Source: Flavobacteriaceae bacterium (lineage in GTDB: Bacteria; Bacteroidota; Bacteroidia; Flavobacteriales; Flavobacteriaceae). From it: 39,060 nucleotides of DNA. A program made the position numbers and the translations under genes. Positions 1 through 18,246 of the stretch are shown here, one piece after another. The notes beneath the pieces are model-generated. The model ran no database searches and was not told where the DNA came from. It worked only from the letters and a program-made list of their open reading frames with translations. The DNA lies in assembly GCA_016649715.1 (NCBI GenBank), contig JAENXC010000026.1, positions 1 to 39,060 on the forward strand. Direction: 5' to 3'. Positions within the stretch are counted from its first letter, which is position 1, and each line of letters starts with the position of its first letter.

Positions 1-140
1 GGCACAAAACGAACCGAGACAACTGGCACAAAACGAACCGTTATAGGTCCGGCTAAACAGCTGAAAGTGGCACAAATTGAACCGAAATGCCTGGCACTAA
101 CCGACCGAAATCACTGGCACCATTTGATCCGAGTTATCCA
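1..140 (+). mobile_element. Right end of an IS21-like element (multiple terminal repeats)
   Basis: Five degenerate copies of a unit like GGCACAAAACGAACCG start at 1, 25, 69, 93 and 116. Spacing is 24, 44, 24 and 23 bases. The last copy is followed by TTATCCA, ending in CA at 139-140, exactly where the neighbouring coding frame loses sense. IS21-family elements have several internal repeats at each end and terminate in TG...CA. On that model the element lies off-window to the left and this is its right end. No transposase genes are visible here, so family assignment is inference. A remnant or an unrelated iteron cluster is the alternative. Confidence 0.45.
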
Positions 141-599
141 ACCGTCATAGGATACAATGAGTTCGGGCGAATCGGTAAGCTTTGCAAACTGAATTTTGAA
201 TGAAAATTTATAATACAGGTTATAGTGTTCTGTATTGCCTTTTGTGGAGGGTAACCAGACTTGAATATTCCTGATCTGATTTTTTACTACAATATATCCT
301 TGGTCTAAAAAGTAGTCTTTTAGTTGATTTTGTAGGAATTGTTTGTAAATGCGCAACTCTCTTCCATCGACTAGGTTTACTTTGAAGGTTGACGCATTTT
401 TTAAGGGTAGGGTATAGGTGGTGAAAATATGATCTGTTTTTGATAGATCGGTTTCGCGAAATGCCTCAATAATTTGTTTCGAGAACTTCGATTTGTGAAT
501 GGGATGACTCCCTTCAACGTCTTCTAGCGAGAGGTAGAAGGTTGGTGCTGTGTTTGGCCATTTGAAGTTGAGAACGTTGGCTTTTAGATGTTCTTTCAT
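111..599 (-). pseudogene. Truncated N-terminal fragment, possibly of a long prokaryotic Argonaute
   Basis: About 150 native residues from an ATG at 599 (a GTG at 659 would add 20 residues) run to the tract VSYDG near base 141. The frame then reads through the IS-like terminal repeats (WITRIKWCQ) and stops at 111. The protein is beta-rich with segments such as LKDYFLDQGYIV and ELIVSYDG. The last resembles the conserved end of the N/L1 region in long pAgos, where SYDG is normally followed by TS and the PAZ domain. PAZ, MID and PIWI would lie beyond the insertion or be lost. The Argonaute call rests on recollection of the family pattern and the defence-island context, so it is tentative. The truncation itself is visible. 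The fragment lies 109 bases downstream of hsdR on the same strand. Confidence 0.45.
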
Positions 600-768
600 A
601 ATTAAGGAGGGTTTAGCGGTTTTACATATCTGGGTCTTGTTTTGGGGAGATTGGTTCACGTTTCATTAATCGTTGCTAAAAAGTTTCTTGTTTTTCGTTT
701 TTAGTAAGTATCACTTCTTTTAAATGTTCATTGGGAGCGATTTTTATATTTTAAATTGATTTACTTAT

Positions 769-3720
769 TTATGGATTAATTTGTTGATTGTTTGGTTGAC
801 TCCATATCTTATCAAAAACAAAATCTAAATATTGGCGTTTGAAATCGGGGTCGTCTGTGAATTTTTTATACAAGTCGGTGTATTGAAATATTACATCTTG
901 CATTAAATCTTCTACTTTTTTATCAGAGGTTATTTTAGCGTTTTGTTTATCGCTATTTTTAACCGCATTAACAGTATCTTCATCACGAGCAAAGTCTGCC
1001 GGTAACTGCTCAAACAAGAAGTTTTTTACTTTATCATCATCAGACCAATTGTCTATACCAAATCTTGTGTTAAACTCATTGATAATAGCTTCCAATTCTT
1101 CAAACCCAAGTTCTCCTTTCTTACCTTTCATTACTGGTGGCGTTGGGTCTAACTCTTCATCTCCTTTTAGCTTGATGTTTTCCTGTGTAGTGCGAGTTAA
1201 TCGGTAACTATCCAAGTCGATTGCTTCTAAAATTCCTTTGGCCAAATCTTCAATTTCTTCTGGCTTTATCTTAGGAATTAGAAATTTTAAAAACCAATAC
1301 AATCTCTCCCAATATACATTGCTGAATGAAAGTATTTTGGATAGAAAGGCATAAGTTCTAAAGAATGATTTTGCTTTTACATAAAAATCTATTTGTGCAT
1401 CTTCATTGAGTTCAGATTTAAATGCAGCTACACATTTATCGATAATTGGGTCTAATTCTTGACGGTCTGCCTCTTTAAAATACAACTCAGTAAAGTTTAC
1501 AATATCATCTTGTGCATATACTTGAGCATTATCTAACGCATCTTGTAAGTCATTCAATTTATTAGCATCTGTTTCTTCACTTAAAATAGTTGTGGTATAG
1601 AAGGGTTTAAATGCTTTTTTAATATCTTCTGTTGAGTTAAAAAAGTCCATCACAAACGTATCTTCCTTATACGGTTTGTAAGCTCTGTTTAATCGTGATA
1701 GCGTTTGTACTGCTTGAACATCTGCTAATTTTTTATCCACATACATAGTATGTAAAAGAGGTTGGTCGAAGCCTGTTTGGAATTTATTAGCTACAATTAA
1801 GAAACGGTACTCTTTTTTCTTAAACTCATTAGGAATATCATTACTTGGGAAACCGTTTAATTTAGCTTCATCTACATCTTCACCATCTAATTCTTTTGTG
1901 CCTGAAAATGCAACAATAGCTTTATAAGGCGAATTGATTTCTTTCAAGTATTCTTTAAATGCCTGGAAGTATTTAATAGCATTGTTGATGCTTTTGCAAA
2001 CTACCATAGCCTTGGCCTGACCGTTTATTTGTTTTCTAATATCCGTATGAAAATGGTCTAACATTACTTTAGACTTTTCCATAATGGAAAACGGATGACT
2101 TTCTACATAAGCCCTTAATTTTTTATTTGCTTGACGTGTTTCAAATTCTGGATTATCTTCTACTGCCTTATCTAATTTATAGTAAGATTGGTACGTTGTA
2201 TAATTTTTAAGCACATCAAGGATAAATTCTTCCTCAATAGCCTGTTTCATTGTATAGGTATCAAATGCCTTAAATTTCCCTTCTGCTGTTTGTGTACCAA
2301 AGGTTTCTAAAGTTTTGTTTTTAGGTGTTGCAGTAAAGGCAAAATAACTCCCATTTTTAAGCATCTTTCTATTTTCAATCAATTCATTGATAACATCTTC
2401 AGATGTTGGTGGCTCTTGTTCTTCTCCGTAAGGTGTTTCCTTATCAGACAATACCCAATTCATTTTACTAGCTGTTTCTCCACTTTGACTACTGTGTGCT
2501 TCATCAATAAGTATGGCAAACTTTTTAGCTTGCAATGTCCCAATTTCATCTATGATGAAAGGGAACTTTTGAACGGTGGTAACAATAATCTTCTTACCAT
2601 CTTCTAAGGCTTGTTTGAGTTGGCGACTCCCTTTATCTATTGCTTCTACAACACTATTTACCTGAGCAAATTGTTTTATATTATCTCTAATTTGTTTGTC
2701 TAAAACTCGTCTATCGGTAACTACAATAACACTATCAAAGAGAGCTTCTGTATATTCTGTATTATGCAGACTCACTAATTGATGAGCCAACCAAGTAATA
2801 GAATTTGACTTACCAGAACCAGCTGAATGCTGTATCAAGTATTTTTGACCTACTCCATTTTCTTTAGCGTGGTTTAAAATGGTTTTAACCGCTCTTAATT
2901 GGTGGTATCTTGGGAAGATTATCTTGCGTTTTATTTTACCTGTATCTTCATCTTTTTCTTCAACTATTTGGGCATAGTTTTCAATGATATTACTAAAACT
3001 TTCTTTCGTTAAAATCTCTTTCCAGAGGTAATCTGTTTTTAGTCCATTTGGGTTTAATGGATTTCCTGCTCCATCATCATTTCCTTTATTGAATGGTAAA
3101 AAGAATGTTTTAGTACCACTCAAATGGGTTGTCATATAAACTAAGTCTGCATCTACTGCAAAGTGAACCATACACCTCCCAAATGTAAATAAGGCTTCTT
3201 TTGGGTCTCTATCGTTTTGATATTGACGGATAGCATTTTTTACATTTTGACCTGTCCATTGATTCTTTAATTCAAATGTACTTACTGGTAATCCGTTTAT
3301 TGAGATTACCATATCTAATGAATTGCTATTGGCTAAACTGTAATATAACTGGCGAGTTACCGAAAAGATATTTGCGTTGTATTGTTTTTGTGCAGTTTGG
3401 TTTAAATGTGATGTTGGCTTTTTATAATAGAGTTGTACTCTAAGGTCTAAATCTTTAATTCCGTTACGCAAAATCTCAATGATTCCTTTTTGACGTATTT
3501 GGTCTGTCAATCTTTTAACAAACTTTTCTTCTCCTCTTTTTAAAATAGTATCATACGCAACTGGCTGCGTTTCTTTTATAAATTCAAAGAGTAGTTTTTT
3601 ATTTATGCAAAGGTCTCTATCGTAATCTGCACTATAGCTTTGACGATAGCCATTATTTTTTATCAAATGTTTTTCTATGATAGTTTCTAAGCCTTTTTCT
3701 GATGTATCGGATGTTTGCAT
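769..3720 (-). CDS. hsdR: Type I restriction enzyme, endonuclease/translocase subunit HsdR
   Basis: This 983-residue protein cuts and translocates DNA as part of the HsdR2M2S1 complex. The N-terminal PD-(D/E)xK-type nuclease shows D136 and FELK (E150, K152). It is followed by the RecA-like motor with Walker A SAGSGKS at about 299-305 and the helicase II box DEAH at about 406-409, in the HsdR-typical context LIDEAHSSQSGE. Motif VI-like residues lie in QTLSRLNRAYKPY near 680. The C-terminal part is the helical region that docks on HsdM. Length is normal for the family and no damage is seen. It is the last gene of the hsd operon, 2 nt after the 283-aa gene. It is unusual in being separated from hsdS by three extra genes. 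Confidence 0.95.
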   Translation of the reverse strand: MQTSDTSEKGLETIIEKHLIKNNGYRQSYSADYDRDLCINKKLLFEFIKETQPVAYDTILKRGEEKFVKRLTDQIRQKGIIEILRNGIKDLDLRVQLYYKKPTSHLNQTAQKQYNANIFSVTRQLYYSLANSNSLDMVISINGLPVSTFELKNQWTGQNVKNAIRQYQNDRDPKEALFTFGRCMVHFAVDADLVYMTTHLSGTKTFFLPFNKGNDDGAGNPLNPNGLKTDYLWKEILTKESFSNIIENYAQIVEEKDEDTGKIKRKIIFPRYHQLRAVKTILNHAKENGVGQKYLIQHSAGSGKSNSITWLAHQLVSLHNTEYTEALFDSVIVVTDRRVLDKQIRDNIKQFAQVNSVVEAIDKGSRQLKQALEDGKKIIVTTVQKFPFIIDEIGTLQAKKFAILIDEAHSSQSGETASKMNWVLSDKETPYGEEQEPPTSEDVINELIENRKMLKNGSYFAFTATPKNKTLETFGTQTAEGKFKAFDTYTMKQAIEEEFILDVLKNYTTYQSYYKLDKAVEDNPEFETRQANKKLRAYVESHPFSIMEKSKVMLDHFHTDIRKQINGQAKAMVVCKSINNAIKYFQAFKEYLKEINSPYKAIVAFSGTKELDGEDVDEAKLNGFPSNDIPNEFKKKEYRFLIVANKFQTGFDQPLLHTMYVDKKLADVQAVQTLSRLNRAYKPYKEDTFVMDFFNSTEDIKKAFKPFYTTTILSEETDANKLNDLQDALDNAQVYAQDDIVNFTELYFKEADRQELDPIIDKCVAAFKSELNEDAQIDFYVKAKSFFRTYAFLSKILSFSNVYWERLYWFLKFLIPKIKPEEIEDLAKGILEAIDLDSYRLTRTTQENIKLKGDEELDPTPPVMKGKKGELGFEELEAIINEFNTRFGIDNWSDDDKVKNFLFEQLPADFARDEDTVNAVKNSDKQNAKITSDKKVEDLMQDVIFQYTDLYKKFTDDPDFKRQYLDFVFDKIWSQPNNQQINP

Positions 3721-3722
3721 AA

Positions 3723-4574
3723 TTATTTATCAAATTCAGTTCTCAATAATTTGGCTATTTTTTCAGTTTCGTCTAAATTTCTTCCAGTTGTCTCAACAAC
3801 AATTCCATATCCTGCATCTTCCCAGTACAGTACAATTTCTACAAGTCCATCTTTACTAATTCGCTTAATAAATCGATTGGTTTTAGGATTAAATGGTAAA
3901 CTATTAATGATATTATTTACGTATTTGTGGTTAATCAACTTCTTTCCAAAAGCTTTTAGAATATCCTTACCGTGATCATCTCTTAAACTAATTTTTTTTT
4001 CAGCAACACTTATAACAGAATCCACTAATTCAATCTTCTTATGTTTTTCATAATAAGTTATTATTTGAGACCCCTCGTTAATGGTTTTAGCAGAAATATT
4101 TAAGCACTCAACTTGATTAACATCATTTAAGTCATCACTATACTCAGAAAATCTAATTATCTCCTCATCCCATATATTATGGGTGCTTATGCTGAGAGAA
4201 GGGATTTCTAGTAAATAAGCAGTAGCGAGACCTTTACAATATTGTTGCGGGATTTTAGATTCTTCATATTCAATAAAATATCTACTTAACTCAGGGGTTT
4301 CATCCCCTAATGCCTCTTCGGAAAAGGGTCTTCTTAGAAAAAGTAATTGTACACGATTACGTTTAGGAGTATCAAGAGATTTAAACCAATCACTAAAAGT
4401 AGTATTTTCTAAAACTTTTATTGCTGAAACTTCTTCAGGTGCAATTATGTGATTGAAATTGAATTTACTAACTAGAAGGTCATAATTTTTCAAACTCGCA
4501 TCCACTATATCAAAGAGCTCCGCTTCTGAATCTGCGAAAGGCTGAAAAGATATTTCATTGAAAGATAATTTCAT
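3723..4574 (-). CDS. Unrecognised 283-aa protein of the hsd operon
   Basis: I do not recognise a family. The protein is soluble, with no signal peptide or membrane segment. The N-terminal two thirds are acidic and mixed alpha/beta. The C-terminal about 100 residues look like a compact conserved domain with RDDHGKDIL, INSLPFNP and IVLYWEDAGYGIVVETTGRN, the last predicted as two adjacent beta-strands. It sits 2 nt after the ATPase gene and 2 nt before hsdR, so translation is probably coupled to both. The fixed position next to an SMC/OLD-like ATPase suggests it is that ATPase's partner (effector, nuclease or adaptor), but no catalytic motif is evident. Function is unassigned. Confidence 0.8.
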   Translation of the reverse strand: MKLSFNEISFQPFADSEAELFDIVDASLKNYDLLVSKFNFNHIIAPEEVSAIKVLENTTFSDWFKSLDTPKRNRVQLLFLRRPFSEEALGDETPELSRYFIEYEESKIPQQYCKGLATAYLLEIPSLSISTHNIWDEEIIRFSEYSDDLNDVNQVECLNISAKTINEGSQIITYYEKHKKIELVDSVISVAEKKISLRDDHGKDILKAFGKKLINHKYVNNIINSLPFNPKTNRFIKRISKDGLVEIVLYWEDAGYGIVVETTGRNLDETEKIAKLLRTEFDK

Positions 4575-4576
4575 TT

Positions 4577-5755
4577 TTACATTAGATTAATAAGTTGATT
4601 GCCCCATTCATCAAGAAGCCCATCCGGGTACTCACTTAACTCGCCTTTTTTATCTAATTCAATATTTATTACCTTAGTATATTGCTCTTGTTCATCAATT
4701 AACTTTTTAAAATAAAACAATATAACTTTATCTTTATCCAAACTACCTTGATTAACTCCTACCCGAATTCCATTTAAGATATGGTCAGAATGAGTCTCTA
4801 TTATAATTTGCACATTATTTTGTGCTACTAAAGCTATTAATTTACCCATTTGTGCTTGACCTCTTGGATGAATATGGCTTTCTGGGTTTTCAATAATCAG
4901 TAATGCTCCTGGTTTAGCTGATAACAACGTTACGATTACAGGTAAGGAATAGGTAATGCCAAAACCAACATTAATCGGTTTAAACCTATTTGTGTTGCCA
5001 TAAACAGGTTGCTGAAATACATACTCTAACAAAACCTCGTCCTGATTTATTGAAGTGGTTCGAACATTTATACCCGGGGAGATTTCGCCTAACCAAAGGT
5101 TTATTTGATTAATTAAAGTCTTGTTAACAATAGTCTTTTTTAATATAAGGTCTTCAATAAAAGATTTTGGGTGTAACAAATTATCAAATGCTACTTCTTC
5201 ATCATAATAGGTTTCTATAAAATGTGCAGTATATTGCCCATTCATACCAATATTTCTGTTTTGTACTACGTCATTATTACTTTTAGGATATGTTGATTTG
5301 GGATTAATTCGATAGGCATTTAGGTATTGAAAGTGATTGGAAAATAAGCCTGTCTTTTCCTTTGCATTTTCAATAAGTGCTTCAAAGTTAATTTCTGTAT
5401 CTCCATAGAAATCAACTTCTGAATTAGGTGGTAGTACATCTTTCTCCATTTCATAAGCATAATGAAATGGTATAATTATATCTCCATCTATATTTAGATT
5501 GAAGATTAAACCTTCTTTTTTTGCATATTGATAAAATGCATCTTTAGTATTTCCAATATCTACATATTTTCCTTTTAGATTTAGCCATCCTTTTGACATG
5601 TCTCTTTCTATATTACTTTGACGCAGTAATAATAAAGACTGAATGAAAGAGGATTTACCTTGCCCATTTAAACCTAATAGGACATTTAAGTTTGCTAACT
5701 TAAAATACTTCTCCTTAATGGATTTAAAGTTTTTTATTTCTATTGATTTTATCAT
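4577..5755 (-). CDS. AAA/SMC-like ATPase, DUF3696 (OLD-like) family
   Basis: This 392-residue ABC-type ATPase belongs to the RecF/SMC/OLD branch. The start IKNFKSIKEK is typical, Walker A GLNGQGKSS is at 28-36, and Walker B plus the following segment, LLIIENPESHIHPRGQ, is at about 285-300. The switch histidine lies in ETHSDHILNGIRV near 318. The C-terminal YPDGLLDEWG segment is typical of DUF3696 proteins. No TOPRIM nuclease domain is seen after the ATPase, unlike full OLD or GajA proteins, so any nuclease must come from a partner. Neighbours are a DUF262 protein (2 nt upstream) and the 283-aa protein (2 nt downstream). Family members are frequent in phage-defence loci, so a sensor or switch role coupled to the R-M system is inferred. 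Confidence 0.88.
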   Translation of the reverse strand: MIKSIEIKNFKSIKEKYFKLANLNVLLGLNGQGKSSFIQSLLLLRQSNIERDMSKGWLNLKGKYVDIGNTKDAFYQYAKKEGLIFNLNIDGDIIIPFHYAYEMEKDVLPPNSEVDFYGDTEINFEALIENAKEKTGLFSNHFQYLNAYRINPKSTYPKSNNDVVQNRNIGMNGQYTAHFIETYYDEEVAFDNLLHPKSFIEDLILKKTIVNKTLINQINLWLGEISPGINVRTTSINQDEVLLEYVFQQPVYGNTNRFKPINVGFGITYSLPVIVTLLSAKPGALLIIENPESHIHPRGQAQMGKLIALVAQNNVQIIIETHSDHILNGIRVGVNQGSLDKDKVILFYFKKLIDEQEQYTKVINIELDKKGELSEYPDGLLDEWGNQLINLM

Positions 5756-5757
5756 AA

Positions 5758-6933
5758 TTATTGATTTATAGCATTTTGAATTAACTCGCCTATCTTTTGA
5801 TGTCTATATTGGGTGTTGTTTTTGTTACCAGTAGAACTAGTTACTGATTTAAAAAACGCTTCATCATTTCTTAATTCAATTTTCAGCTGTTTTTTTAATA
5901 ATGCCTTATTCTCTTTAAGTCTAATGACCTCATCACTATTTAATAGGGCAAACTGGGTTGATACTGCATCAAACAAAGCTTTATTAATTGGTGGTACTCT
6001 TTTATACTCTCTATATACCTTTCTAAAAGTTTCTTTACCAAAAATTGTTTTGGCCAATTTCATAGCATCGGCAAATTTTAACTTGATTATATTGAGTTCA
6101 TCTTCGGTTTTATCATAAACAATAGCCATTGCTTTACTCATAAAGGTCTCGAGATCTTGTCCATACTCTCTAGAGCCATAATTTTCGACACCTAATTCAT
6201 AAAATGCTAAGAATCGATTTGCAAAATCTCTATCTAACATTCTATGCGTTTTTATTTTATAGTCAGTGGCTTTTTTAAACTCTTCTAAATTTGCTAATTC
6301 AGAAATAAACTTTGATGGTTTTCCTTGGAATAAGGCGTGACGAATTTCTTGAGATTCTAAAACCAAACCGCCCGTATTAATTCTTTTAAAAATATTAAAC
6401 TTAACATCTGCCGGCGTCCCTGGCATAATCTTGTAAATGACTACCTGAGTTTCTTCAATTTGACGTTGTAAATTATCTGGTAGTTCACTCCATTTTTTCC
6501 CATTTAAGTGTGTAAGGAATTCTAAGTTAGATAAAGGCTGATTGCCTAACACAAAGTTTCGGACACTACTTAAGCGCTGTAAACCATCAACAATGAGCCA
6601 ATTGTCGTCATCACTTGCATCAAAGAAAAATGCAGGTAAAGGAAAACGGATAAGAATAGACTCAATTAATCTGCTTTGATGAGTTTTATCCCATAAATCA
6701 TCCTGTCTTTGAAAATAATTTGAAGTATCCATTTGAATACTATTTCTTTTGATTCGTTTTATTAATAAATCTAAAGAAGGTTGCTTCGTTTCAATTTTAA
6801 TTAATGTTGGGTCAAATGGCTTTTCCATTAAGCCTAAAGAGACATCTTCTAATTCTTGCTCTGTACCGTCTCCAGCTTCTAAAGGTTCATTTAAAAGCTC
6901 ATCTTCATTTATGTTATGATAACTGTTATCCAT
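5758..6933 (-). CDS. DUF262 (GmrS-like, ParB/Srx-fold) protein
   Basis: This 391-residue protein has the DUF262 hallmark IVDGLQRL at about 114-121 and the second motif FKRINTGGLVLESQEIRHAL at about 182-201. In GmrSD and related enzymes the DGxQR motif belongs to an NTP-dependent ParB-like domain that powers or performs cleavage of modified DNA. The GmrD-type DUF1524 (HNH) domain is not seen here, and the C-terminal 130 residues are helical and lysine-rich. The first about 45 residues are acidic and probably disordered. The gene begins 2 nt after hsdS and ends 2 nt before the ATPase gene. It is either an accessory nuclease of the hsd locus or a unit of a second defence system sharing the operon. 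Confidence 0.88.
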   Translation of the reverse strand: MDNSYHNINEDELLNEPLEAGDGTEQELEDVSLGLMEKPFDPTLIKIETKQPSLDLLIKRIKRNSIQMDTSNYFQRQDDLWDKTHQSRLIESILIRFPLPAFFFDASDDDNWLIVDGLQRLSSVRNFVLGNQPLSNLEFLTHLNGKKWSELPDNLQRQIEETQVVIYKIMPGTPADVKFNIFKRINTGGLVLESQEIRHALFQGKPSKFISELANLEEFKKATDYKIKTHRMLDRDFANRFLAFYELGVENYGSREYGQDLETFMSKAMAIVYDKTEDELNIIKLKFADAMKLAKTIFGKETFRKVYREYKRVPPINKALFDAVSTQFALLNSDEVIRLKENKALLKKQLKIELRNDEAFFKSVTSSTGNKNNTQYRHQKIGELIQNAINQ

Positions 6934-6935: not shown

Positions 6936-8243
6936 CTATGACTTTACAATTTTATGATTAAACTTTCCCAATACAGCTTCTGCTATCATAGCTTCTTTGT
7001 ACTCTTTTATGAGTTCTATTTCTTTTTGGGCTTGGGTGATGGCTTGGTCTATTTTGGCGGTTTCGGTTTTGATGTGCAAAACGATTTGGGCTTGTTCTTC
7101 TTTGGGCGGGACAGATGTGTATATAGTTTTTAAATGATTAATATTAAACCTAAAAACCTTTACACCTGTAGCGAATTTTTGAAGACTTTTTGTAAATACC
7201 TTAGAAGAATAGTACAAAAACTTACTGTCAATATTTTCAGCATAAGGCTTTAAAGCCATCTGTTCACCTCCTAATAAGCCTATATCATTCCTATTGTAAA
7301 AAACAGAATGTCCTAAATCTTCGATAGTCTCCGATGTTGAAACAACTATAATATCCCCAAATTTTATTGTTTGAGTAGACTTGTAAAATTCTTCATTTAC
7401 ATAAAATTGAAAATTCTCATCAACTTCATCAACCTTGTAAGTCTTACCATATTGTAGTGCTACATATTTACCTTTATTCAGTAATTCGTCTTTTTTGAAA
7501 CTTGAATTACCCCTAACAAAATTACATAATCCATTAATTTTAGTCACTTTCCAATGCTCTGGAATATCTCCCAGCCAATCAATACCGCTATCTTTTAATT
7601 TTACATTAGGGTTAACACCTTTTGTAACTGCTTTATTTAAAACCGCCTGTCGTTGTTCTTTTAGCAAGGCAATAAAGGTTTGCTTCTTTTTAATGAAGTG
7701 TTTTATTTTTTTGGATTGTTCTTTAATGTAGGCTACAATTTGATCTTGCTCTGTTTTAGGTGGTACAGGTGCAGGTATGCTAAAAAACTTATCAGAATAT
7801 AAACGTAATCTACTATCTATAATACCGTAAGACTTTTTTCTAAACTCCGCTTTCATAAATGCTGTAGAAAACAAATACCCGTAATAATCTGGGTTGTTAT
7901 CTCCTTTAATGCGATACACACAATAGGCAGGACTTGTAATACCATTATATTTAGAAATACCCAAACTACCATTCCAAGCCAACATAATGTTACTTACCAA
8001 ATCGTTTTCGGCTACTTTTTTATAACCTACTAAGGTTTTAGCATTGCTTATAAAATCGTCTTCATTAGCAAGACTATCTTTTTTTTTGGTAACGCCAGTA
8101 TAGTGAGAAACAGACAATAATTCTTCTTTTCCTGTTTCGCTTCTGTCGTCTATTTCAGCAAAAATATTTTTGATACGCAAAGTGTTCCAATGCTCTGGAG
8201 CATTGGCCAACCAAGTCGTTTTATATGTTTCTTGTACCATCAT
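6936..8243 (-). CDS. hsdS: Type I restriction-modification specificity subunit HsdS
   Basis: This 435-residue DNA-recognition subunit has two target-recognition domains. Each opens with the family signature, WLANAPEHWNTLRIKNIF at about residues 11-28 and IDWLGDIPEHWKVTKI at about 220-235. Each is followed by a coiled-coil spacer (EQDQIVAYIKEQSKKI and EEQAQIVLHIKTETAKI), as in type I S subunits where each TRD reads one half of a bipartite site. Length is standard and both halves are present. It directly follows hsdM with no gap, so M and S are co-translated. The target sequence cannot be predicted by eye. Confidence 0.94.
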   Translation of the reverse strand: MMVQETYKTTWLANAPEHWNTLRIKNIFAEIDDRSETGKEELLSVSHYTGVTKKKDSLANEDDFISNAKTLVGYKKVAENDLVSNIMLAWNGSLGISKYNGITSPAYCVYRIKGDNNPDYYGYLFSTAFMKAEFRKKSYGIIDSRLRLYSDKFFSIPAPVPPKTEQDQIVAYIKEQSKKIKHFIKKKQTFIALLKEQRQAVLNKAVTKGVNPNVKLKDSGIDWLGDIPEHWKVTKINGLCNFVRGNSSFKKDELLNKGKYVALQYGKTYKVDEVDENFQFYVNEEFYKSTQTIKFGDIIVVSTSETIEDLGHSVFYNRNDIGLLGGEQMALKPYAENIDSKFLYYSSKVFTKSLQKFATGVKVFRFNINHLKTIYTSVPPKEEQAQIVLHIKTETAKIDQAITQAQKEIELIKEYKEAMIAEAVLGKFNHKIVKS

Positions 8244-10013
8244 TTATGCTTCTACAATTTCTTTTAATAGGTGTTCTGTTTCTTCTTCAATCTTAAAAAT
8301 ATCGGCAGATATTTGTTCTAAAGATCTTGGAGCTTTGTGTTTGTAGAAGTATTTAGCAAAGTTTATTTCGTAACCTATTTTGGTTTCTTTTGGGCTGTAC
8401 CAAGCATCTCCTGCAAATGGGAGTACTTCTTTTTCAAAAAAGGCATCAATATCTTCTTTTAAAGGGATGTTTTCTTTGTCTTTAAGTGCTGTATCACTTT
8501 TAGGTTTTTTCTTGCTATCGGTAATGATATTTCCTTTTTCATCTCTTTGTGGGCGGTGTACAGTTATTTGGCTATATCCAAAATCTTCATTGTCTAAAAT
8601 GATACTGTGTTCGTTGTTTTCGAAGTTTAAAAACAAGTCGGTAATGGCCCTAATGTGTTTGGAATTAAATTCTACTCGCTTTTTACCTAAAGGCTTTCGC
8701 ATCTTGCTATAAAACTGATCGGTTGTAACACTAATGAGCTGTAGTTTACCCTTACGGTTTTCTTCTTTTTTATTGTTCAATATAAAAATATAGGTAGGAA
8801 TACCTGTGTTGTAGAACAAGTCGTTAGGCAAAGCGATAATAGCTTCTAACAAATCATTTTCCAAAAGATATTTACGTATTTCGGTTTCTCCTTGACCTGC
8901 ATCTCCAGTAAATAAAGCTGAACCGTTGTGTATTGTTGCTGCTCTACTACCTAAAATACTATTGTTTTCTAGTTTAGAAACAATATTCATTACAAAGAGT
9001 AATTGCCCATCATTGATTCTTGGCACACCCACAGTAAAACGTGGGTCTATGATTTCTTTTTTATCGAGAATGGCATCTTTATCTACTTTCCAAGTTTTTC
9101 CGTAGGGTGGGTTACTAATCATAAAGTCAAACTGTAAGTTTGGAAAACCATCTTTACTGAGTGTAGAACCAAAAGCAATTTTCTCTGGGTCTTCATCTTT
9201 AATGAGCATATCTGCTTTACAAATGGCATAAGTTTCAGGATTCACCTCTTGACCGTATAAATGAAAGGTTGCCTTTGGGTTGAGTTTGTTGGCAAAGTGT
9301 TCAGCTTCTGTAAGCATACCACCACTACCACAAGCTGGGTCGTATATTAAATAAGTACCATCTTTGATTTTCCCTTTTAAGGGTTCAAAAATTAAATGGG
9401 TCATTAATTTAATAATCTCTCTTGGCGTAAAGTGTTCTCCTGCTTCTTCATTGTTTTCTTCATTGAACTTTCGTATCAATTCTTCAAAAACATATCCCAT
9501 TCCTAAATTGGTTAAGCCTTCCATCACTACATTACCATCTTTATCGGTAACAGGGTTTGGACTTACATTTATAGTACTGGAACAAAACTTTTCTATTAAT
9601 GGAAATGTGATATTTCCTTCTTCTAAAGTTTCTAATTGGTTGCGTAGTTTAAACTTGCTAATAATGTCCTGCACATTACTGCTAAAACCATCTAAATAGG
9701 TTTCTAAATTCTGACGGATATTACCAGGTTCATTTAATAACCTTTTAAAAGTATAGTTAGAGGTATTGTAAAATACATAACCGCTTGTTTTACGAAGTTG
9801 AGGCCCTTGGTTATCAATCTTCATTTCGTTTAACTTTTGATGCATTTCTAATACCTTGTCTTTAGTAGGTTCAAGAATGGCATCTAATCTTCTTAAGACT
9901 GTAAAAGGTAAAATAATATCTCTGTATTTACCTCTAGTGTATACATCACGCAATACATCATCTGCAATACTCCAGATAAAATTTACGATAGCATTATGTT
10001 GGGTTTGATTCAT
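8244..10013 (-). CDS. hsdM: Type I DNA methyltransferase subunit HsdM
   Basis: This 589-residue adenine-N6 methyltransferase subunit binds S-adenosylmethionine through motif I DPACGSGGM (about 225-233) and carries the catalytic motif IV NPPY (about 301-304). The N-terminal HsdM_N helical domain (SIADDVLRDVYTRGKY, VLRRLDAIL) is present. GEHFTPREI at about 192-200 precedes the SAM-binding domain as in canonical HsdM. It overlaps the upstream XRE gene by 4 bases (ATGA) and abuts hsdS, so regulator, M and S are translationally coupled. Placing M under direct control of a small regulator and leaving hsdR last is compatible with methylation preceding restriction. Confidence 0.96.
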   Translation of the reverse strand: MNQTQHNAIVNFIWSIADDVLRDVYTRGKYRDIILPFTVLRRLDAILEPTKDKVLEMHQKLNEMKIDNQGPQLRKTSGYVFYNTSNYTFKRLLNEPGNIRQNLETYLDGFSSNVQDIISKFKLRNQLETLEEGNITFPLIEKFCSSTINVSPNPVTDKDGNVVMEGLTNLGMGYVFEELIRKFNEENNEEAGEHFTPREIIKLMTHLIFEPLKGKIKDGTYLIYDPACGSGGMLTEAEHFANKLNPKATFHLYGQEVNPETYAICKADMLIKDEDPEKIAFGSTLSKDGFPNLQFDFMISNPPYGKTWKVDKDAILDKKEIIDPRFTVGVPRINDGQLLFVMNIVSKLENNSILGSRAATIHNGSALFTGDAGQGETEIRKYLLENDLLEAIIALPNDLFYNTGIPTYIFILNNKKEENRKGKLQLISVTTDQFYSKMRKPLGKKRVEFNSKHIRAITDLFLNFENNEHSIILDNEDFGYSQITVHRPQRDEKGNIITDSKKKPKSDTALKDKENIPLKEDIDAFFEKEVLPFAGDAWYSPKETKIGYEINFAKYFYKHKAPRSLEQISADIFKIEEETEHLLKEIVEA

Positions 10014-10697: not shown

Positions 10698-11393
10698 CTA
10701 TTTATTTCCTTCGAGACAAAAATCTATTTTGTCCATTATTTTTTGAAATCGATCTTCTTGGGTTTCATAATATAGATTGGCTAGTATTGCTTCTTGGAGT
10801 TTTGCATTTTCCTTTATTTCCTGGAGTTGTTGTAAGAGAAAGGTTTTTACATTTCCTGTTTCTTCTTTAATTATTTTGTGCCAATCGGTACGGTTGTCGA
10901 GGATATAGGTTATATCTTCAAAATCGTGGCTAAAACGTGGGTCTGTGCCACCACGGTCTAAATGTGCGGTAAACTTACTGGCCAGGAAATAGGTTAGGGG
11001 CATTATCTGAATAATTGTGCCATTAATATCTATTTTTTGAAGGTTGTTGAAACCCTCTTCAAACCACGGGTTTGCGGGTGCCCAGCCCACTGCCTTTGTA
11101 GCCATAACGTCTACTAGAATATCGTCTAGTTTAAAACGACATATTACGTCTAAATCGGCCGATTGTTTAAACCCTTTTTTTACAAGTTCTTCCCTAATTT
11201 CCTCGAGATGGGCTAGGGAAGCTACCTTTATACTTATATCAATATCTTTTGTTGGGCGAACGTCGTCTGCTGCGGGATCGTTACAATATAAGCTCACTGT
11301 TGCCCCACCTACGTAAATTACTTGGTTATTGAGGTCGCCCAATGCATTTGCCACTTTCTGAATGACCTTTCTATTGATGATTGTATTTTTCAT
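10698..11393 (-). CDS. Nucleotidyltransferase, AbiEii/AbiGii toxin-like
   Basis: This 231-residue protein has the pol-beta/MNT nucleotidyltransferase pattern: VGGATVSLY (GG motif, about 28-36), the paired aspartates of RPTKDIDISI (about 46-55), and a later DVICRFKLDDILVDVM strand giving the third acidic position. The segment SHDFEDITYIL near 160-170 matches the conserved part of AbiEii-like proteins. AbiE-type toxins transfer nucleotides to tRNA or other targets and cause abortive infection. Its ATG lies 1 nt after the stop of the winged-helix gene, the usual antitoxin-then-toxin order. It could also be a housekeeping-like NTase, but the mobile context favours a toxin. Confidence 0.75.
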   Translation of the reverse strand: MKNTIINRKVIQKVANALGDLNNQVIYVGGATVSLYCNDPAADDVRPTKDIDISIKVASLAHLEEIREELVKKGFKQSADLDVICRFKLDDILVDVMATKAVGWAPANPWFEEGFNNLQKIDINGTIIQIMPLTYFLASKFTAHLDRGGTDPRFSHDFEDITYILDNRTDWHKIIKEETGNVKTFLLQQLQEIKENAKLQEAILANLYYETQEDRFQKIMDKIDFCLEGNK

Positions 11394-11394
11394 A

Positions 11395-11907
11395 CTAATT
11401 AAGCCTTAGTTTTAATTCGTCCATAGCCATTTTTTGCTCCCTAACATTCCCCAACCTTATAGCATCCAACAAAGCCAAAAGTTCATATAACTTTTGATCT
11501 TCTAAACAAGCTTTTGGAACATTGGGATGTAGCGGTTCTACGGCGAAACCTCGTTGATCTCCTTGGCTATAGGGCCACACGTATTTTTGGTTGCTTTGTA
11601 TATTTTTTGCTAAAGGCATAGCACTATGTGCTGTAGGTACACCTCTTACCATTGCTCCAGGTTTTTGCGGATACACATATTTTATTCCGTAAAAGATAAA
11701 TTCTTGTATGGCTGAAGTAAGCAGTCTCTTTTTGTTACTTGCTATTAAGCCAGCCATTACGCTTCTGTTCAATGACTCACTAACTTCACTCTGACTGATG
11801 TAAAGTTCATTAGCAAGATCCTTCATATACCATTGCTCTTTACCTTTTGCCAGAATTTTTAAAAGGATGAGTATGTCGTGGGGGCGCATTCCGCTATGTC
11901 TTTTCAT
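11395..11907 (-). CDS. Winged-helix DNA-binding protein, putative antitoxin of the NTase pair
   Basis: This 170-residue protein has an N-terminal MarR-like winged helix at about 5-65 (ILILLKILAKG, then LANELYISQSEVSESLNR as the recognition helix region). The C-terminal domain contains GVPTAHSAMPL and EPLHPNVPKACLEDQKLYELL. It overlaps nothing but is separated from the nucleotidyltransferase start by 1 nt. By analogy with AbiEi it would repress the operon and neutralise the toxin, although I do not see the AbiEi C-terminal domain signature with certainty. A heptamer array lies just upstream of its start codon. Confidence 0.72.
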   Translation of the reverse strand: MKRHSGMRPHDILILLKILAKGKEQWYMKDLANELYISQSEVSESLNRSVMAGLIASNKKRLLTSAIQEFIFYGIKYVYPQKPGAMVRGVPTAHSAMPLAKNIQSNQKYVWPYSQGDQRGFAVEPLHPNVPKACLEDQKLYELLALLDAIRLGNVREQKMAMDELKLRLN

Positions 11908-11914
11908 TGTTTTC

Positions 11915-11942
11915 GATTTGTGATTCGCGATTCGCGATATGC
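11915..11942 (+). repeat. Heptanucleotide array next to the antitoxin start codon
   Basis: Four heptamers in a row read GATTTGT, GATTCGC, GATTCGC, GATATGC. The array starts 8 bases upstream of the start codon of the winged-helix gene, within its 5' leader or promoter. Confidence 0.7.
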
Positions 11943-11991
11943 AAATCTAATAAAATTTAATTAATTAGTAATAGTCGGGAGAGGGGAGTGG

Positions 11992-12075
11992 GAAATCGAA
12001 ATCGAAATTGAAGATGAAGATGAAGATGAAGATGAAGATGAAGATGAAGATGAAGATGAAGATGAAGATGAAAAT
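11992..12075 (+). repeat. Hexanucleotide array with ten perfect GAAGAT copies
   Basis: Fourteen hexamers read GAAATC x2, GAAATT, GAAGAT x10 (12010-12069) and GAAAAT. A perfect ten-copy run is prone to slippage. It lies 85-168 bases upstream of the winged-helix gene, where a length change would shift promoter-to-upstream spacing by full half-turns of about 6 bp. Confidence 0.95.
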
Positions 12076-12153
12076 GGTGGTGAGAGGTCCATCCGTCGCT
12101 AAAGCTACGGTAGGTTAGGAGAGATTTAGACTTGGGGAAATTAGCTTTTGTTT

Positions 12154-12204
12154 GTCGGGTTATGGCCTGACAAATTTGAGAGCTAAGTAAGGTTATAACC
12201 TGAC
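12154..12204. promoter_or_regulatory. Inverted repeat in the spacer after the DUF3987 gene
   Basis: Arms GTCGGGTTAT (12154-12163) and ATAACCTGAC (12195-12204) match at 9 of 10 positions. The right arm contains the perfect palindrome GGTTATAACC (12191-12200). No T-run follows, so it is more likely a binding site or weak hairpin than a terminator. The whole 334-base gap 11908-12241 holds this, the hexamer and heptamer arrays, and an 8-base-period AAATCCTT run near 12218-12238. Confidence 0.4.
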
Positions 12205-12241
12205 GAAATGTGATGAAATCCTCAAATCCTTAAATCCTTAA

Positions 12242-13978
12242 TTAGGGTTTCGTGGGATTTGTGTAGGTGTTGTGGGCCTCTCGGTGGATTAAATTTGCTT
12301 CTACAAACTTTGTGATATAGCCTTCGGCAGTTTTATGAGGGATGTTGCAGGTGTGTGCTATATCTAAATAATCTTGTCTAGAGAATTGTTTGGGTAGGTT
12401 TTCGAGGAAACGTTCTTTTCGGTTAAGTCGTTTTGGGGCCGAATGTTCTATTGGTAGATCGTTGAATACTTTGCTGCTATGCTTCACCAGTATAGAAACA
12501 ATGGTTATTGCATTTTTGAAATCTTCGTCCTCACATAATTTTACACTGTTTACGTCGCCATCTTCCATAATACGAAAGGCGGTGAAGAGCATCATTAAAC
12601 GGAAAGCGATTAATCCTAATCGTCTAATGGTTGCGATGTATTCTTCGGGTTGTAAGCTTATGTATTTGGTCTGAAGGGATTCAAAGAAAAGGTTGAACTG
12701 TTGTTGTTGGGATTCTGTTAGGTGTATTTCAATTTCAGCATTGTTTTTTAGGGTTTTATAGAATTCTAGAAATTCGGTTCCGAGTTGGGCATAATATTCA
12801 TCAAGGCCGGTACTTTGATTGGATAGGAATACGTTTTTCCATTCGGGTTTAATGTTCATATAATAGAACATAAAGCGACTGAATAGGCCATTTTCGGCAT
12901 TCGGTATTAAGGTTGCCACTTGCTTGGGAGTGCCTGATAGCACAGTGGATAAACAGGGTCTTTCGATATCTACATATTCTCTGTCTGTTCTTCTGTAATA
13001 GCTTATTGTTTCGTGATGGAAGGCTTTTCGGAAACCGTCGCTGTAGTTCCCATAATCACTTTTAAAAGCTTGGGCTAGGGTGTCGCCTTCGGTTTCGAAA
13101 ATCAAGCCTCTGCCATCATTATCGGATATCAATTGATAGACTCCTGTAACGCTATTGTTAGCAGGGATGAATAGCATTCTTTCTGGAGGTCGATTTGGTT
13201 TTTCGAGACTTTCATCTTTTCCTTTATTCATATTGTATGCGGCCGTTTCTACCTGAAATTGTTGTTTTAAAACTTTGGCTTGTTCGCGCATTACTTTGTG
13301 TACTGGGTTAACGATGGCTTTTATCTGATTCAATCGTCCTTTGCCTGCGGAAGCGGGGGCGGTTACAAAAAGGTATAGGTTGCTGTAAACTTTTCGCTGA
13401 TCGTACACGCCGAATAAATTAGGGAAACAGGCGCTAAAGGCGGTTAAAGCTCCCAATAGTAAAATGTCTTTTTCCTCGGGGCTTGTGGAAGGTTTTACAA
13501 CTTGTTGTAAAAACTCCGGCAATGTGTTGTAAACACTTTCGGGGAAAGTGGGCATTGTTTCTGGTTCCTTGGGATTGGAATTTTTCTGGATTCTTATTTC
13601 CGACTTTTTAGGTTTTACTCCTGCTTGATGGGCGTGATGATAGAAGGTGGCGATTGTAATTCCGTGTCCTTTCGCGTTTAGGCATTTGTCAAATTGTTCG
13701 TCGCATTCTTTGGAGTCGTATCCTACATAGTTTTTACTTATTCGGTGGAAATAATCTCTTCCTGATTCCCCGTATTCATCCGATAGGGCGAAGCCTAGAT
13801 CGCGCCACGTGGCGTAATTGCCAGTGATGTCTATGCCTGCTTGCTCGATTGCGGTAATAAACGATTCTATGTCATTATTAGCAACAGCAACAACCGTAGT
13901 TGTTGCGTTGCTAACTTTGGGTTTTGGTTGCTCCTTTGGAGCGTCTAACCAATCCTTGGGATTAAAATGTTTTGTCAT
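12242..13978 (-). CDS. DUF3987 primase/helicase-like replication protein with PriCT-2 domain
   Basis: This 578-residue protein has an N-terminal PriCT-2-like domain (about 35-115: WRDLGFALSDEYGESGRDYF and ATFYHHAHQAG) followed by the DUF3987 ATPase domain. The nucleotide-binding loop is the modified Walker A TAPASAGKGRL near 207-217. PERMLFIPANNSVTGVY and LSGTPKQVATLIPNAENGLFSRF are characteristic of the family. Such proteins act in replication of Bacteroidota integrative elements after excision. The C-terminus is a small HTH-like segment (FSRQDYLDIAHTCNIPHKTA). Its start overlaps the upstream BT4734-type gene by 4 bases, so the two are a translational unit. Confidence 0.85.
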   Translation of the reverse strand: MTKHFNPKDWLDAPKEQPKPKVSNATTTVVAVANNDIESFITAIEQAGIDITGNYATWRDLGFALSDEYGESGRDYFHRISKNYVGYDSKECDEQFDKCLNAKGHGITIATFYHHAHQAGVKPKKSEIRIQKNSNPKEPETMPTFPESVYNTLPEFLQQVVKPSTSPEEKDILLLGALTAFSACFPNLFGVYDQRKVYSNLYLFVTAPASAGKGRLNQIKAIVNPVHKVMREQAKVLKQQFQVETAAYNMNKGKDESLEKPNRPPERMLFIPANNSVTGVYQLISDNDGRGLIFETEGDTLAQAFKSDYGNYSDGFRKAFHHETISYYRRTDREYVDIERPCLSTVLSGTPKQVATLIPNAENGLFSRFMFYYMNIKPEWKNVFLSNQSTGLDEYYAQLGTEFLEFYKTLKNNAEIEIHLTESQQQQFNLFFESLQTKYISLQPEEYIATIRRLGLIAFRLMMLFTAFRIMEDGDVNSVKLCEDEDFKNAITIVSILVKHSSKVFNDLPIEHSAPKRLNRKERFLENLPKQFSRQDYLDIAHTCNIPHKTAEGYITKFVEANLIHREAHNTYTNPTKP

Positions 13979-14883
13979 AATGCTCTGTGTCTTTTATGAA
14001 GAAAGGCCAGGGGATCGTGAGGTATGAAACAGGCTCTAGATTTGTCTTTCCCTGATTGGTCTACTTCAATGTTGTACGTTTTCTTTATGTAGTTGGCTAC
14101 TGCTGTGAAATACTCGCTATGCGATATTTCAGAAATATCAATTCTGATAATCCACTTTATGCCATTGCCAGATGGGGAGGTGAACAGCAATTCGGTTTCG
14201 AAATATTCGTCATTCAAAAGCTGTTCTTTTAGCTCTTGCAAATTTTCTAAGTGATCGAAGTCGATGGTTAAAAGATTGGAATGTTCTTTTAGATCCTTGT
14301 CGTTACGTTTTTCAAATACACCAGAAAATGTGACGTAATCAAAACGATTCGCCTTGAATTTACTTGCTTCTTTTGCATCGGAAATGGCTCTTAAATCTTC
14401 TGTTATTTTTTTATATTTATCAGTTGTGATTAAATCAAATACTTGGTGTAACCTCAAAGTTTCTGAAGGAAACACATTGCGAACTGGGGCTTTGAAAAAG
14501 CTACAGTGTGCATACCAGGTATCGTCTGGACCATTCAACCATTCCAATTCATCTATTACCTTCACTTTTAAATTTAGATGCAGCTCTTGGTTTATCTTCT
14601 GTAATAAATCGGCTTCATCGGTCAATTTAAAATGGTACTGAGCAAAATCGAATACATCGCCTTCAAAGGTTTCTAATTCAATATCTCTGTGAGTTGCAAT
14701 TACTCCATCAATATGAATGCGCAATGTTTCTTTGCCGCCATTAAATGGGTTCCGTGTTACCCCACAGTCCCTTCCTTTTACGGAAAGGACTGTTGTTTCA
14801 GGATAATACTGTCTCAACACATAGGCGTAAATCTTTAGGCCGTAATGTGTTTTATCTAGTATTGCTTGCCTACTTATTTCCAT
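13975..14883 (-). CDS. BT4734/BF3469-type protein (VirE N-terminal-like domain)
   Basis: This 302-residue protein has a C-terminal half matching the BT4734/BF3469 family: FSGVFEKRNDKDLKEHSNLL, the acidic LTIDFDHLENL, SPSGNGIKWIIRI and the terminal CFIPHDPLAF. These resemble archaeo-eukaryotic-primase-like catalytic cores carried by Bacteroidota mobile elements. The N-terminal half (ETTVLSVKGRDCGVTRNPF and FEGDVFDFAQ) resembles the accessory domain found fused to them. It lies between two HTH genes and the DUF3987 gene and overlaps both neighbours (4 bases with DUF3987, 14 with the HTH gene). The likely role is priming of element replication. Confidence 0.8.
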   Translation of the reverse strand: MEISRQAILDKTHYGLKIYAYVLRQYYPETTVLSVKGRDCGVTRNPFNGGKETLRIHIDGVIATHRDIELETFEGDVFDFAQYHFKLTDEADLLQKINQELHLNLKVKVIDELEWLNGPDDTWYAHCSFFKAPVRNVFPSETLRLHQVFDLITTDKYKKITEDLRAISDAKEASKFKANRFDYVTFSGVFEKRNDKDLKEHSNLLTIDFDHLENLQELKEQLLNDEYFETELLFTSPSGNGIKWIIRIDISEISHSEYFTAVANYIKKTYNIEVDQSGKDKSRACFIPHDPLAFLHKRHRAL

Positions 14884-15462: not shown

Positions 15463-15490
15463 AACTATTTATATTTAAATTATAGAAATG

Positions 15491-15508
15491 GACATTTGGC
15501 CAAATGTC
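15491..15508. promoter_or_regulatory. 18-bp perfect palindrome upstream of the HTH/replication operon
   Basis: GACATTTGGCCAAATGTC is perfectly self-complementary. It lies 28 bases upstream of the first HTH gene, with a smaller inverted repeat CTTG-5-CAAG just beyond. Strong dyad symmetry in the operon leader suggests an operator. An origin or relaxase site is possible but unsupported. Confidence 0.55.
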
Positions 15509-15587
15509 ATTCTTGGGTTTCAAGAACAGGACAAAGGTTTAAAATGTTGGATTTTAAAAAGTGGAGATTTTTAGATAGGATAAAGAC

Positions 15588-15618: not shown

Positions 15619-15629
15619 TTTTATTGCAT

Positions 15630-17665: not shown

Positions 17666-17669
17666 AATG

Positions 17670-18218: not shown

Positions 18219-18246
18219 AATGTGTTGATTAACAAGGAATAGCTAA

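What the first reader, a model, noticed from the sequence alone, without database searches (positions are those of the whole stretch)
3723..6933. Three-gene ATPase/DUF262/unknown module embedded in a type I R-M operon
Between hsdS and hsdR lie a GmrS-like DUF262 protein lacking the HNH partner, an SMC/OLD-like ATPase lacking a TOPRIM nuclease, and an unrecognised 283-aa protein. All junctions from hsdS to hsdR are exactly 2 nt, so the seven genes look like one co-evolved unit. Campylobacter hsd loci are known to carry 'R-linked ORFs' (rlo) in this position, but I do not know this trio as a described system. A plausible model is a backup system triggered when restriction fails, or one that senses HsdR/HsdS state or modified phage DNA.
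Basis: partly seen in the sequence, partly recalled or inferred. Interest (0 to 1): 0.82.

Follow-up and report, generated by a model that had tools for sequence, protein, structure and literature searches.

The report
Menshen defence cassette inside restriction operon
The three puzzling genes are a known three-gene bacterial anti-virus system, Menshen, carried as swappable cargo between two genes of a classic restriction system, and the tail of its likely toxin differs from relative to relative.

Summary
In detail: hsdM-hsdS-[DUF262, ATPase, 283-aa]-hsdR, 2-nt junctions from hsdS to hsdR. The trio is not undescribed: it matches PADLOC NsnA, NsnB and NsnC nearly end to end, the Menshen system (Nsn = Menshen is recalled). 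One subtype was also published as "ptuXYZ" (PMC11980606).

The trio is an independent cassette, not co-evolved with hsd. In 22 loci of the window's family with this HsdR, the slot before hsdR holds Menshen (5), GmrSD-like pairs (3), Tiamat, SoFic, Schlafen, RmuC, Abi_2 or other genes (8), or nothing substantial (6). Two sister Hsd backbones carry different Menshen lineages (AU p 4e-47); a 98%-identical HsdR has none. Eight plasmid trios show no hsd. Yet all 5 trios found in 299 family genomes sit here, so linkage is not chance.

NsnC has a shared N-domain and a swapped C-domain: YoeB-like in relatives, unidentified here. Likely: NsnA senses, NsnB relays, NsnC poisons. "Backup when restriction fails" is possible, untested.

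The parts
5758..6933 (-). nsnA: DUF262 (GmrSD_N, ParB/Srx-type NTPase) protein, 391 aa, DGLQR, FQR and FKRIN motifs present, no DUF1524/HNH
   Evidence: PADLOC PDLC03877 NsnA E 5.5e-124, profile positions 23-384 of 385; PF03235 E 2.2e-20; motifs
4577..5755 (-). nsnB: OLD/ABC-type P-loop ATPase with C-terminal DUF3696, 392 aa; Walker A GLNGQGKS (K34), Walker B LLIIENPESHIH, H-loop IETHSDHI; no TOPRIM hit
   Evidence: PADLOC PDLC03878 NsnB E 2e-107, profile positions 1-343 of 345; PF13175, PF13304, PF12476; motifs; the only PDB sequence hit at E 0.01 is an OLD-family entry, 6p74, E 3.7e-5
3723..4574 (-). nsnC: two-part protein, 283 aa; N-domain about 1-176 shared by several Menshen groups, C-domain about 177-283 is the swapped, presumed effector part
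   Evidence: PADLOC PDLC03895 NsnC E 1.1e-84, profile positions 1-281 of 281; N/C split by BLAST and hhalign
3723..4046 (-). coding part of the NsnC C-domain; conserved H201 G202, K212, Y218, T262 T263 G264, E269 T270
   Evidence: alignments of 4 sequences; residues 176-281 match the end of PADLOC CARF7--CARF_DUF2103, E 5.1e-13; no Pfam hit better than E 0.068; no PDB hit better than E 0.19
6936..8243 (-). hsdS, specificity subunit, 435 aa, upstream border of the cargo slot
   Evidence: PF01420 E 1.1e-18
8244..10013 (-). hsdM, N6-adenine methyltransferase, 589 aa
   Evidence: PF02384, PF12161
769..3720 (-). hsdR, restriction subunit, 983 aa, downstream border of the cargo slot
   Evidence: PF04313, PF18766, PF04851, PF22679
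10010..10315 (-). HTH_31/Xre-type regulator, first gene of the operon, overlaps hsdM by 4 nt
   Evidence: PF13560 E 4.1e-11

Best explanation
The trio is a complete Menshen anti-phage cassette (NsnA-NsnB-NsnC) lodged in the cargo slot between hsdS and hsdR of a type I restriction-modification operon, on what looks like an integrative island next to mnmE. Shown here: family membership, gene order, intact nucleotide-binding motifs, modular NsnC, and repeated filling of the same slot with different content. Inferred mechanism: NsnA (a DUF262 NTPase) recognises infection, probably foreign or modified DNA as its DUF262 relatives do; NsnB (an OLD/ABC-type ATPase) relays the signal; NsnC is held by its conserved N-domain and its swappable C-domain is the toxin (a YoeB/RelE-type RNase in several relatives, an unidentified domain here). 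Sharing the hsd operon would put the suicidal or modified-DNA layer under the same regulator as the restriction layer, but the cassette does not need hsd genes to persist.
For: Three nearly end-to-end PADLOC matches in the right order. Walker A/B, H-loop and DGLQR intact in the window; Walker A, Walker B and DG-x-QR found in all 23 trios compared and the H-loop pattern in 22 of 23 (motif patterns recalled). NsnC N-domains of the window's group are homologous to those of two other groups (hhalign 99.7% and 97%) while C-domains are not (at most 3.4% in all 21 comparisons); the C-domain of L091 is YoeB_toxin, PF06769 E 3.3e-10, and L045 and L092 carry the same C-domain by alignment. Eight plasmid trios with no hsd among the listed genes, one on a 7.6-kb plasmid. 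HsdR and HsdM trees give the same main groups, while sister backbones carry different Menshen lineages or other cargo. DUF262 is required in Menshen according to a review (PMC10952713, passages).
Against: No function was measured. The window's own NsnC C-domain has no Pfam, NCBIfam or significant PDB match and the AlphaFold model is unusable (pLDDT 34.5), so 'toxin' rests on its position and on swapped relatives; profile comparison with the YoeB group gives 0.13%. What NsnA senses is taken from GmrSD, BrxU and SspE. A review says a Menshen component is OLD/TOPRIM-like; no TOPRIM was found here. All 5 trios of the family sample sit in the hsd slot, and slot content follows the HsdR tree somewhat better than shuffled labels (12 changes against a shuffled mean of 14.6, as low in 4 of 200), which leaves room for a functional tie that the cassette view understates.
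Confidence: 0.68

Rival explanations
1. Guardian of restriction, PrrC-like: NsnA/NsnB monitor the Hsd complex or its DNA intermediates, and NsnC fires when a phage inhibitor or DNA mimic disables restriction. The slot is favoured because co-expression with HsdS/HsdR is needed for sensing.
For: All 5 trios in the family sample lie in front of this HsdR, p 1.9e-5 without the window. The hsd label needs four changes (gains or losses) on the NsnA+NsnB tree, and L051 and L056 have very distant HsdM backbones, so the association arose more than once. At least six of 17 trios in the phylum sample stand with a DNA methyltransferase. PrrC in EcoprrI is the printed precedent (PMC12707154, passages).
Against: 15 of 17 phylum trios and 8 of 8 plasmid trios read show no hsd. 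Related Hsd backbones do with other cargo or none. Different Menshen lineages sit on sister Hsd backbones, so no specific co-adaptation is visible.
Confidence: 0.2
2. Pure hitch-hiking: the hsdS-hsdR junction is only a tolerated recombination spot in a well-expressed defence operon; cargo gains expression and mobility and there is no functional interplay at all.
For: About ten kinds of content in 22 loci; DNA homology between the window and L116 covers hsdR (window 791-3730) and stops 10 nt before its start codon; a paper calls the site a potential recombination hotspot for defence systems (PMC12255303, passages).
Against: The concentration of Menshen in this slot within the family. TgvAB alone gave 10-100-fold less protection against several phages than the full V. 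cholerae type I cluster (PMC11411939, passages), so embedded systems can interact.
Confidence: 0.3
3. Type IV-like restriction: NsnA itself nicks or cuts modified phage DNA (ParB/Srx-type nuclease), and NsnB/NsnC are regulators.
For: NsnA belongs to the GmrSD_N family; Gerdes proposes a nuclease role for the equivalent PtuX (PMC11980606, section 26).
Against: No DUF1524/HNH domain. The part that varies fastest and is swapped for a known toxin domain is NsnC, not NsnA.
Confidence: 0.1

Closest known systems
Menshen (NsnA-NsnB-NsnC; Millman et al. 2022, recalled and cited; Li et al. 2025 NAR gkaf357, title seen in reference lists only)
   Same: All three genes, order, nearly full-length profile matches, DUF262 plus ATPase plus a variable third gene.
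   Different: Here it sits inside a type I operon; the NsnC C-domain belongs to a small group (window, L002, L047, L051, and the interrupted copy in L090). Whether Li et al. already report this could not be read.
ptuXYZ (Gerdes 2025, PMC11980606, section 26 read)
   Same: DUF262 protein, P-loop ATPase, two-domain third protein with an N-domain he calls PIN-like; L045, L091 and L092 here fit it (YoeB C-domain).
   Different: The window's third protein has another C-domain. The terms Menshen and Nsn were not found in that paper's main text, so one system appears to carry two names.
TgvAB in the V. cholerae VPI-2 type I operon (PMC11411939, passages)
   Same: DUF262 genes embedded in a type I operon.
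   Different: Two DUF262 proteins, one with DUF1524, no ATPase; L118, L119 and L121 in the present slot are GmrSD pairs of this general kind (L119 by likeness to L118).
DarTG2 between hsdS and hsdR in EPEC (PMC12255303, passages)
   Same: Same slot, small regulator as first gene of the operon.
   Different: Unrelated cargo (toxin-antitoxin); its regulator RptR is a 79-aa protein, here a 101-aa Xre-type one; the two were not compared.
PrrC in EcoprrI (PMC12707154, passages)
   Same: Embedded in an hsd locus; RNase effector logic is analogous.
   Different: Single anticodon nuclease that responds to Stp; no DUF262 partner and no three-gene module.

Membership tests
Menshen | Adjacent nsnA, nsnB, nsnC, each matching its PADLOC profile | tested here: met
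   E 5.5e-124, 2e-107, 1.1e-84, covering profile positions 23-384/385, 1-343/345, 1-281/281; gaps 2 nt
Menshen | NsnA with a DUF262 nucleotide-binding motif | tested here: met
   PF03235 and DGLQR
Menshen | NsnB with an intact-looking P-loop ATPase core | tested here: met
   Walker A, Walker B, H-loop
Menshen | OLD/TOPRIM nuclease domain in one component (named in a review; not taken as defining, because the PADLOC profiles are matched without it) | tested here: not met
   No TOPRIM in the Pfam scan; NsnB model matched 1-343 of 345 positions
Menshen | Protection against phages | not testable with these tools
   needs plating
GmrSD type IV restriction | DUF262 plus DUF1524/HNH | tested here: not met
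   DUF262 only; no DUF1524 in the trio
ptuXYZ | Third protein with a YoeB-type BECR C-domain | tested here: not met
   Window none by Pfam and 0.13% by hhalign to the YoeB group; relative L091 has it
PARIS / Gabija | OLD-type ATPase with TOPRIM partner or domain | tested here: not met
   Ranked far below NsnB (AriA 8.9e-25, GajA 7.7e-14) and no TOPRIM
MADS (methylation-associated defence) | MAD2, MAD3, MAD5 above their curated cut-offs | tested here: not met
   39.6 of 720, 47.7 of 420, 32.1 of 400 bits
Type I restriction-modification | HsdM, HsdS, HsdR with their domains | tested here: met
PrrC/RloC guardian nuclease | Single ATPase-anticodon-nuclease protein activated by restriction failure or DNA breaks | tested here: not met
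   The cargo is three separate Nsn proteins; activation was not testable

The most novel reading that the evidence does not exclude
Menshen in this family has become a restriction guardian: it is kept in front of HsdR because NsnA/NsnB read the state of the Hsd complex or its stalled DNA intermediates, and a rapidly swapped NsnC toxin domain (here of a kind with no structure found, resembling, as far as searched, only the end of a CARF7-family profile) is released when restriction is inhibited. Menshen would then be a general, plug-in suicide layer for DNA-modification systems, since trios also stand beside type IIG and C5 methyltransferases.
Probability: 0.18. Interest if true: 0.72.

Novelty: new member of a known kind. 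Interest (0 to 1): 0.4.

Why it matters
It removes an apparent unknown and replaces it with a testable question: why does Menshen, a self-contained cassette, keep turning up in the same slot of type I operons? The 22-locus comparison gives a natural series (one HsdR family, about ten kinds of content, or none) for asking whether embedded systems cooperate with restriction or only share a promoter. The swapped NsnC C-domains point to NsnC as the effector and to a YoeB-type RNase in some lineages, and they suggest that Menshen and ptuXYZ are one system under two names.

Tried and rejected
Single co-evolved seven-gene unit: rejected. Window versus L091: hsdM 93%, hsdR 88.8%, but hsdS 39.2%, NsnA 70.8%, NsnB 56.4%, NsnC 22%; L092 versus L093: hsdM 80.6%, hsdR 82.8%, but hsdS 46.8%, NsnA 36.4%, NsnB 36.9%, NsnC 21.6%.

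Conserved 2-nt junctions as evidence: rejected.

Viral contigs: no NsnC relative of this type; 21 NsnA relatives, of which six (L133-L138) have NsnB next to NsnA. Plasmids: no NsnC relative, 23 records with NsnA at E 1e-30, 8 read. One genome-contig scan gave one locus, L002.

Fold of NsnC: AlphaFold with two sequences gave pLDDT 34.5; no fold search was run. The C-domain order helix-helix-strand-strand-strand-helix resembles RelE's, but at that confidence it is a hint only. A second job (C-domain alone) never entered the queue. hhalign between the window's C-domain group and the YoeB group gave 0.13%, so a RelE fold here is not shown. Search for the C-domain elsewhere: only the window among 287 genomes; the known carriers G297 and G311 were not listed there, so that sample or its first look misses some. 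PDB sequence searches: NsnC none at E 1, NsnA none at E 0.01, C-domain nothing below E 0.19.

Operator repeats before the HTH gene: only short repeats, not pursued. One search repeated part of a scan already done. Paper searches gave nothing direct on the trio.
Full report
WHAT IS THERE. The operon on the minus strand reads HTH regulator, hsdM, hsdS, a DUF262 protein, an ATPase, a 283-aa protein, hsdR. Base composition marks hsdM through hsdR as one low-GC block (30-34%) against 38-41% for the HTH gene and the five other island genes measured, and 38.2% for window 20,001-39,060. The window is contig C36 of a 3.40-Mb, 71-contig genome.

WHAT THE TRIO IS. PADLOC profiles match nearly end to end: NsnA 5.5e-124 (positions 23-384 of 385), NsnB 2e-107 (1-343 of 345), NsnC 1.1e-84 (1-281 of 281). 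That these Nsn names belong to Menshen is recalled; the call prints only the gene names. A review describes Menshen as containing a DUF262 gene whose mutation or deletion abolishes resistance and a predicted OLD-type component (PMC10952713, passages). Li et al. [quoted passage not shown] it is not held. Gerdes 2025 describes "ptuXYZ": a DUF262 protein, a P-loop ATPase and a third protein with a degenerate PIN-like N-domain and a YoeB-like BECR C-domain (PMC11980606, section 26). Relatives L045, L091 and L092 fit that description, and their NsnA and NsnB group with the window's trio, so ptuXYZ looks like the YoeB subtype of Menshen; the words Menshen and Nsn do not occur in that paper's main text.

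NsnC IS MODULAR. BLAST of the two halves of the window's NsnC against the third genes of 23 relatives: the N-part (1-176) matches L002, L092, L045, L051 and L091 at E below 1e-7; the C-part matches only L002, L047 and L051 significantly (for L090 only the first of two ORFs was in that set, but the whole interrupted gene matches the profile 1-281). By profile comparison the N-domains of the window's group and the YoeB group are homologous (99.7%) and those of the window's group and a third group also (97%), while no pair of the seven C-domain groups scores above 3.4% in 21 comparisons. The N-domains of the other four groups (g4, g5, g6, g7) are linked to the window's at 20% or less. In L091 the C-domain is PF06769 YoeB_toxin (E 3.3e-10, above its cut-off). 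Of the seven other third genes scanned in that call none has a Pfam hit above its cut-off. The window's C-domain conserves H201 G202, K212, Y218, T262 T263 G264, E269 T270 across four sequences and resembles only the last hundred positions of PADLOC's CARF7--CARF_DUF2103 profile (5.1e-13). A CARF7-family protein fused to a RelE domain has been described (PMC9676260, passages), but that is not shown to be this profile. The position is that of an effector domain; its chemistry is unknown. The AlphaFold model is too poor to use.

IS IT ONE UNIT WITH HSD? I searched 299 genomes of the window's family with the window's HsdR: 22 have it at E <= 1e-100, the window included. Gene maps of all 22 with family scans give this content in front of hsdR: Menshen 5 (window, L090, L091, L092, L093; L091 also carries a PDDEXK_3 and a RhuM gene there); GmrSD-type pairs 3 (L118 and L121 scanned, L119 read by its likeness to L118); Tiamat TmtA 1 (L120, 4.7e-265); SoFic 1 (L128); Schlafen AlbA_2 1 (L126); RmuC 1 (L132); a HATPase with DUF1643 and small genes 1 (L124); the small genes of that set without the HATPase 1 (L127); an unknown 448-aa protein 1 (L130); RhuM plus Abi_2 in place of hsdM, hsdS and trio 1 (L116); nothing but at most an ORF under 100 aa 6 (L117, L122, L123, L125, L129, L131). 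hsdM and hsdS are seen upstream in 20 of 22; in L090 the contig ends after a 296-aa ORF, and L116 lacks both.

On the HsdR tree the content needs 12 changes among the 11 states I assigned; the least possible is 10 and shuffled labels need 14.6 on average, as few in 4 of 200, so close relatives do tend to share content. The HsdM tree, built without L090 and L116 and with the distant L051 and L056 added, gives the same main groups. L092 and L093 are sisters by HsdR (SH-aLRT 99) and HsdM (89, not starred), yet forcing their NsnA+NsnB into one clade is rejected (p-AU 4.1e-47). The closest HsdR of all, 98.2% identical in L116, has no Menshen. So hsdM and hsdR travel together, and the slot is refilled.

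IS THE LINK CHANCE? Not within the family. A search of 299 family genomes with NsnB finds 8 at E <= 1e-40 (more divergent NsnB would be missed): five at 300 bits or more, all five in front of this hsdR, and three at 141-158 bits that have no NsnA next to them. Without the window, 4 of 4 fall among 21 of 298 genomes (p 1.9e-5, taking as one sample; related genomes are not independent events). A sixth trio of the family, L046 from the phylum sample and not listed, stands behind a C5 methyltransferase instead. In the phylum sample (395 genomes, 113 with any NsnA-family match) I took 47 of the best NsnA places: 17 have NsnA and a full NsnB side by side and 2 of these 17 are hsd-linked (L051 after hsdM-hsdS with hsdR upstream, L056 between hsdS and hsdR, with a PIN gene before the trio); 30 of 47 lack a full NsnB beside NsnA, a few because of contig ends or fragments. 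At least six of the 17 stand with a DNA methyltransferase: L044, L046, L051, L052, L054, L056 (not every neighbour was scanned). Some of the 17 are near-copies (L043/L044, L052/L053, L058/L059) or lie at contig ends. The hsd label needs four changes, gains or losses, on the NsnA+NsnB tree of 23 trios; shuffled labels need 6.2, as few in 14 of 500. Of 23 plasmid records with NsnA I read 8; all 8 have the trio and none lists hsd genes in the stretch read, though those gene tables are incomplete and one (L174) lists brxL nearby.

HOW IT PROBABLY WORKS. Shown: intact-looking NTPase motifs in NsnA and NsnB, a modular NsnC, mobility as a cassette. Inferred: NsnA senses, NsnB relays, NsnC kills or arrests. 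Type I restriction handles unmodified phage DNA and DUF262 sensors often handle modified DNA (TgvAB is the printed example, PMC11411939, passages), so a shared operon would give layered cover. A PrrC-like guardian role (PMC12707154, passages) is possible and is the most interesting alternative.

WHAT IS KNOWN ABOUT THE SLOT. DarTG2 lies between hsdS and hsdR in EPEC, and the authors call the site a potential recombination hotspot for defence systems (PMC12255303, passages). Cargo in this slot is therefore in print. In the listings of my paper searches and the passages I looked at (5 of the 11 papers) nothing describes Menshen in it; the other six I saw as listings only, and the two key Menshen papers were not readable here.

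VERDICT. A real feature, correctly seen, but an ordinary member of a described system in a described kind of slot. The added value is the cargo-slot comparison, the evidence against strict co-evolution, and the effector swap.

Noticed in passing
window 111-659 and 1-115: An ORF matching positions 2-150 of a 674-position PADLOC pAgo profile (4.3e-42) follows hsdR and stops after 182 aa. The first 115 bases of the window occur at 7 places in the genome, the window included (6 at 100% identity, one at 79%; four of them at the very start of a contig), so a repeated, IS-like sequence probably cuts the pAgo gene.
   Followed up: partly
window 18501-19664: The mnmE reading frame is broken near its 3' end; the usual C-terminal end is readable in another frame. 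A relative (L116) has a 465-aa ORF there. Real frameshift or assembly error was not decided.
   Followed up: partly
window 10698-18501: An island with a tyrosine-integrase-like gene (16568-17665, named from its sequence, not scanned) lies directly downstream of mnmE; L116 has a similar integrase gene and its hsdR next to mnmE too. SGI1 also uses this site (recalled).
   Followed up: partly
window 10698-11907: A pair matching PADLOC candidate system PDC-M21 A and B (3.3e-48, 1.9e-48; a winged-helix protein and an AbiEii-like nucleotidyltransferase) stands just upstream of the hsd operon.
   Followed up: no
L116:1844-7348: An HsdR 98.2% identical to the window's stands without hsdM or hsdS; HTH, RhuM and Abi_2 genes lie before it. 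A lone HsdR could be inert or serve another methylase.
   Followed up: partly
L090:11951-12784: NsnC in this embedded relative is interrupted by an in-frame stop while NsnA and NsnB are open: the presumed effector alone is broken there, or the assembly is wrong.
   Followed up: no
L044, L052, L054, L046: Menshen trios behind type IIG/MmeI-type or C5 DNA methyltransferase genes, so hsd may be only one of several modification partners.
   Followed up: partly
L175 (NZ_MN657092.1): A 7.6-kb Psychrobacter plasmid whose six listed genes are rep, mob, a hypothetical protein and the trio: a minimal natural construct for testing.
   Followed up: no
L062, L065-L089: A second, commoner arrangement: an NsnA-like DUF262 protein followed in most of these loci by an ORF of about 150-250 aa, with no full NsnB next to it. 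In L080 such a pair itself lies between hsdS and hsdR.
   Followed up: no
L130, L131, L132: An NsnB-like ATPase (522-672 aa, about 250 bits with the script's NsnB profile) and an ORF of 329-339 aa stand just before hsdM in these three operons, a possible second cargo position.
   Followed up: no
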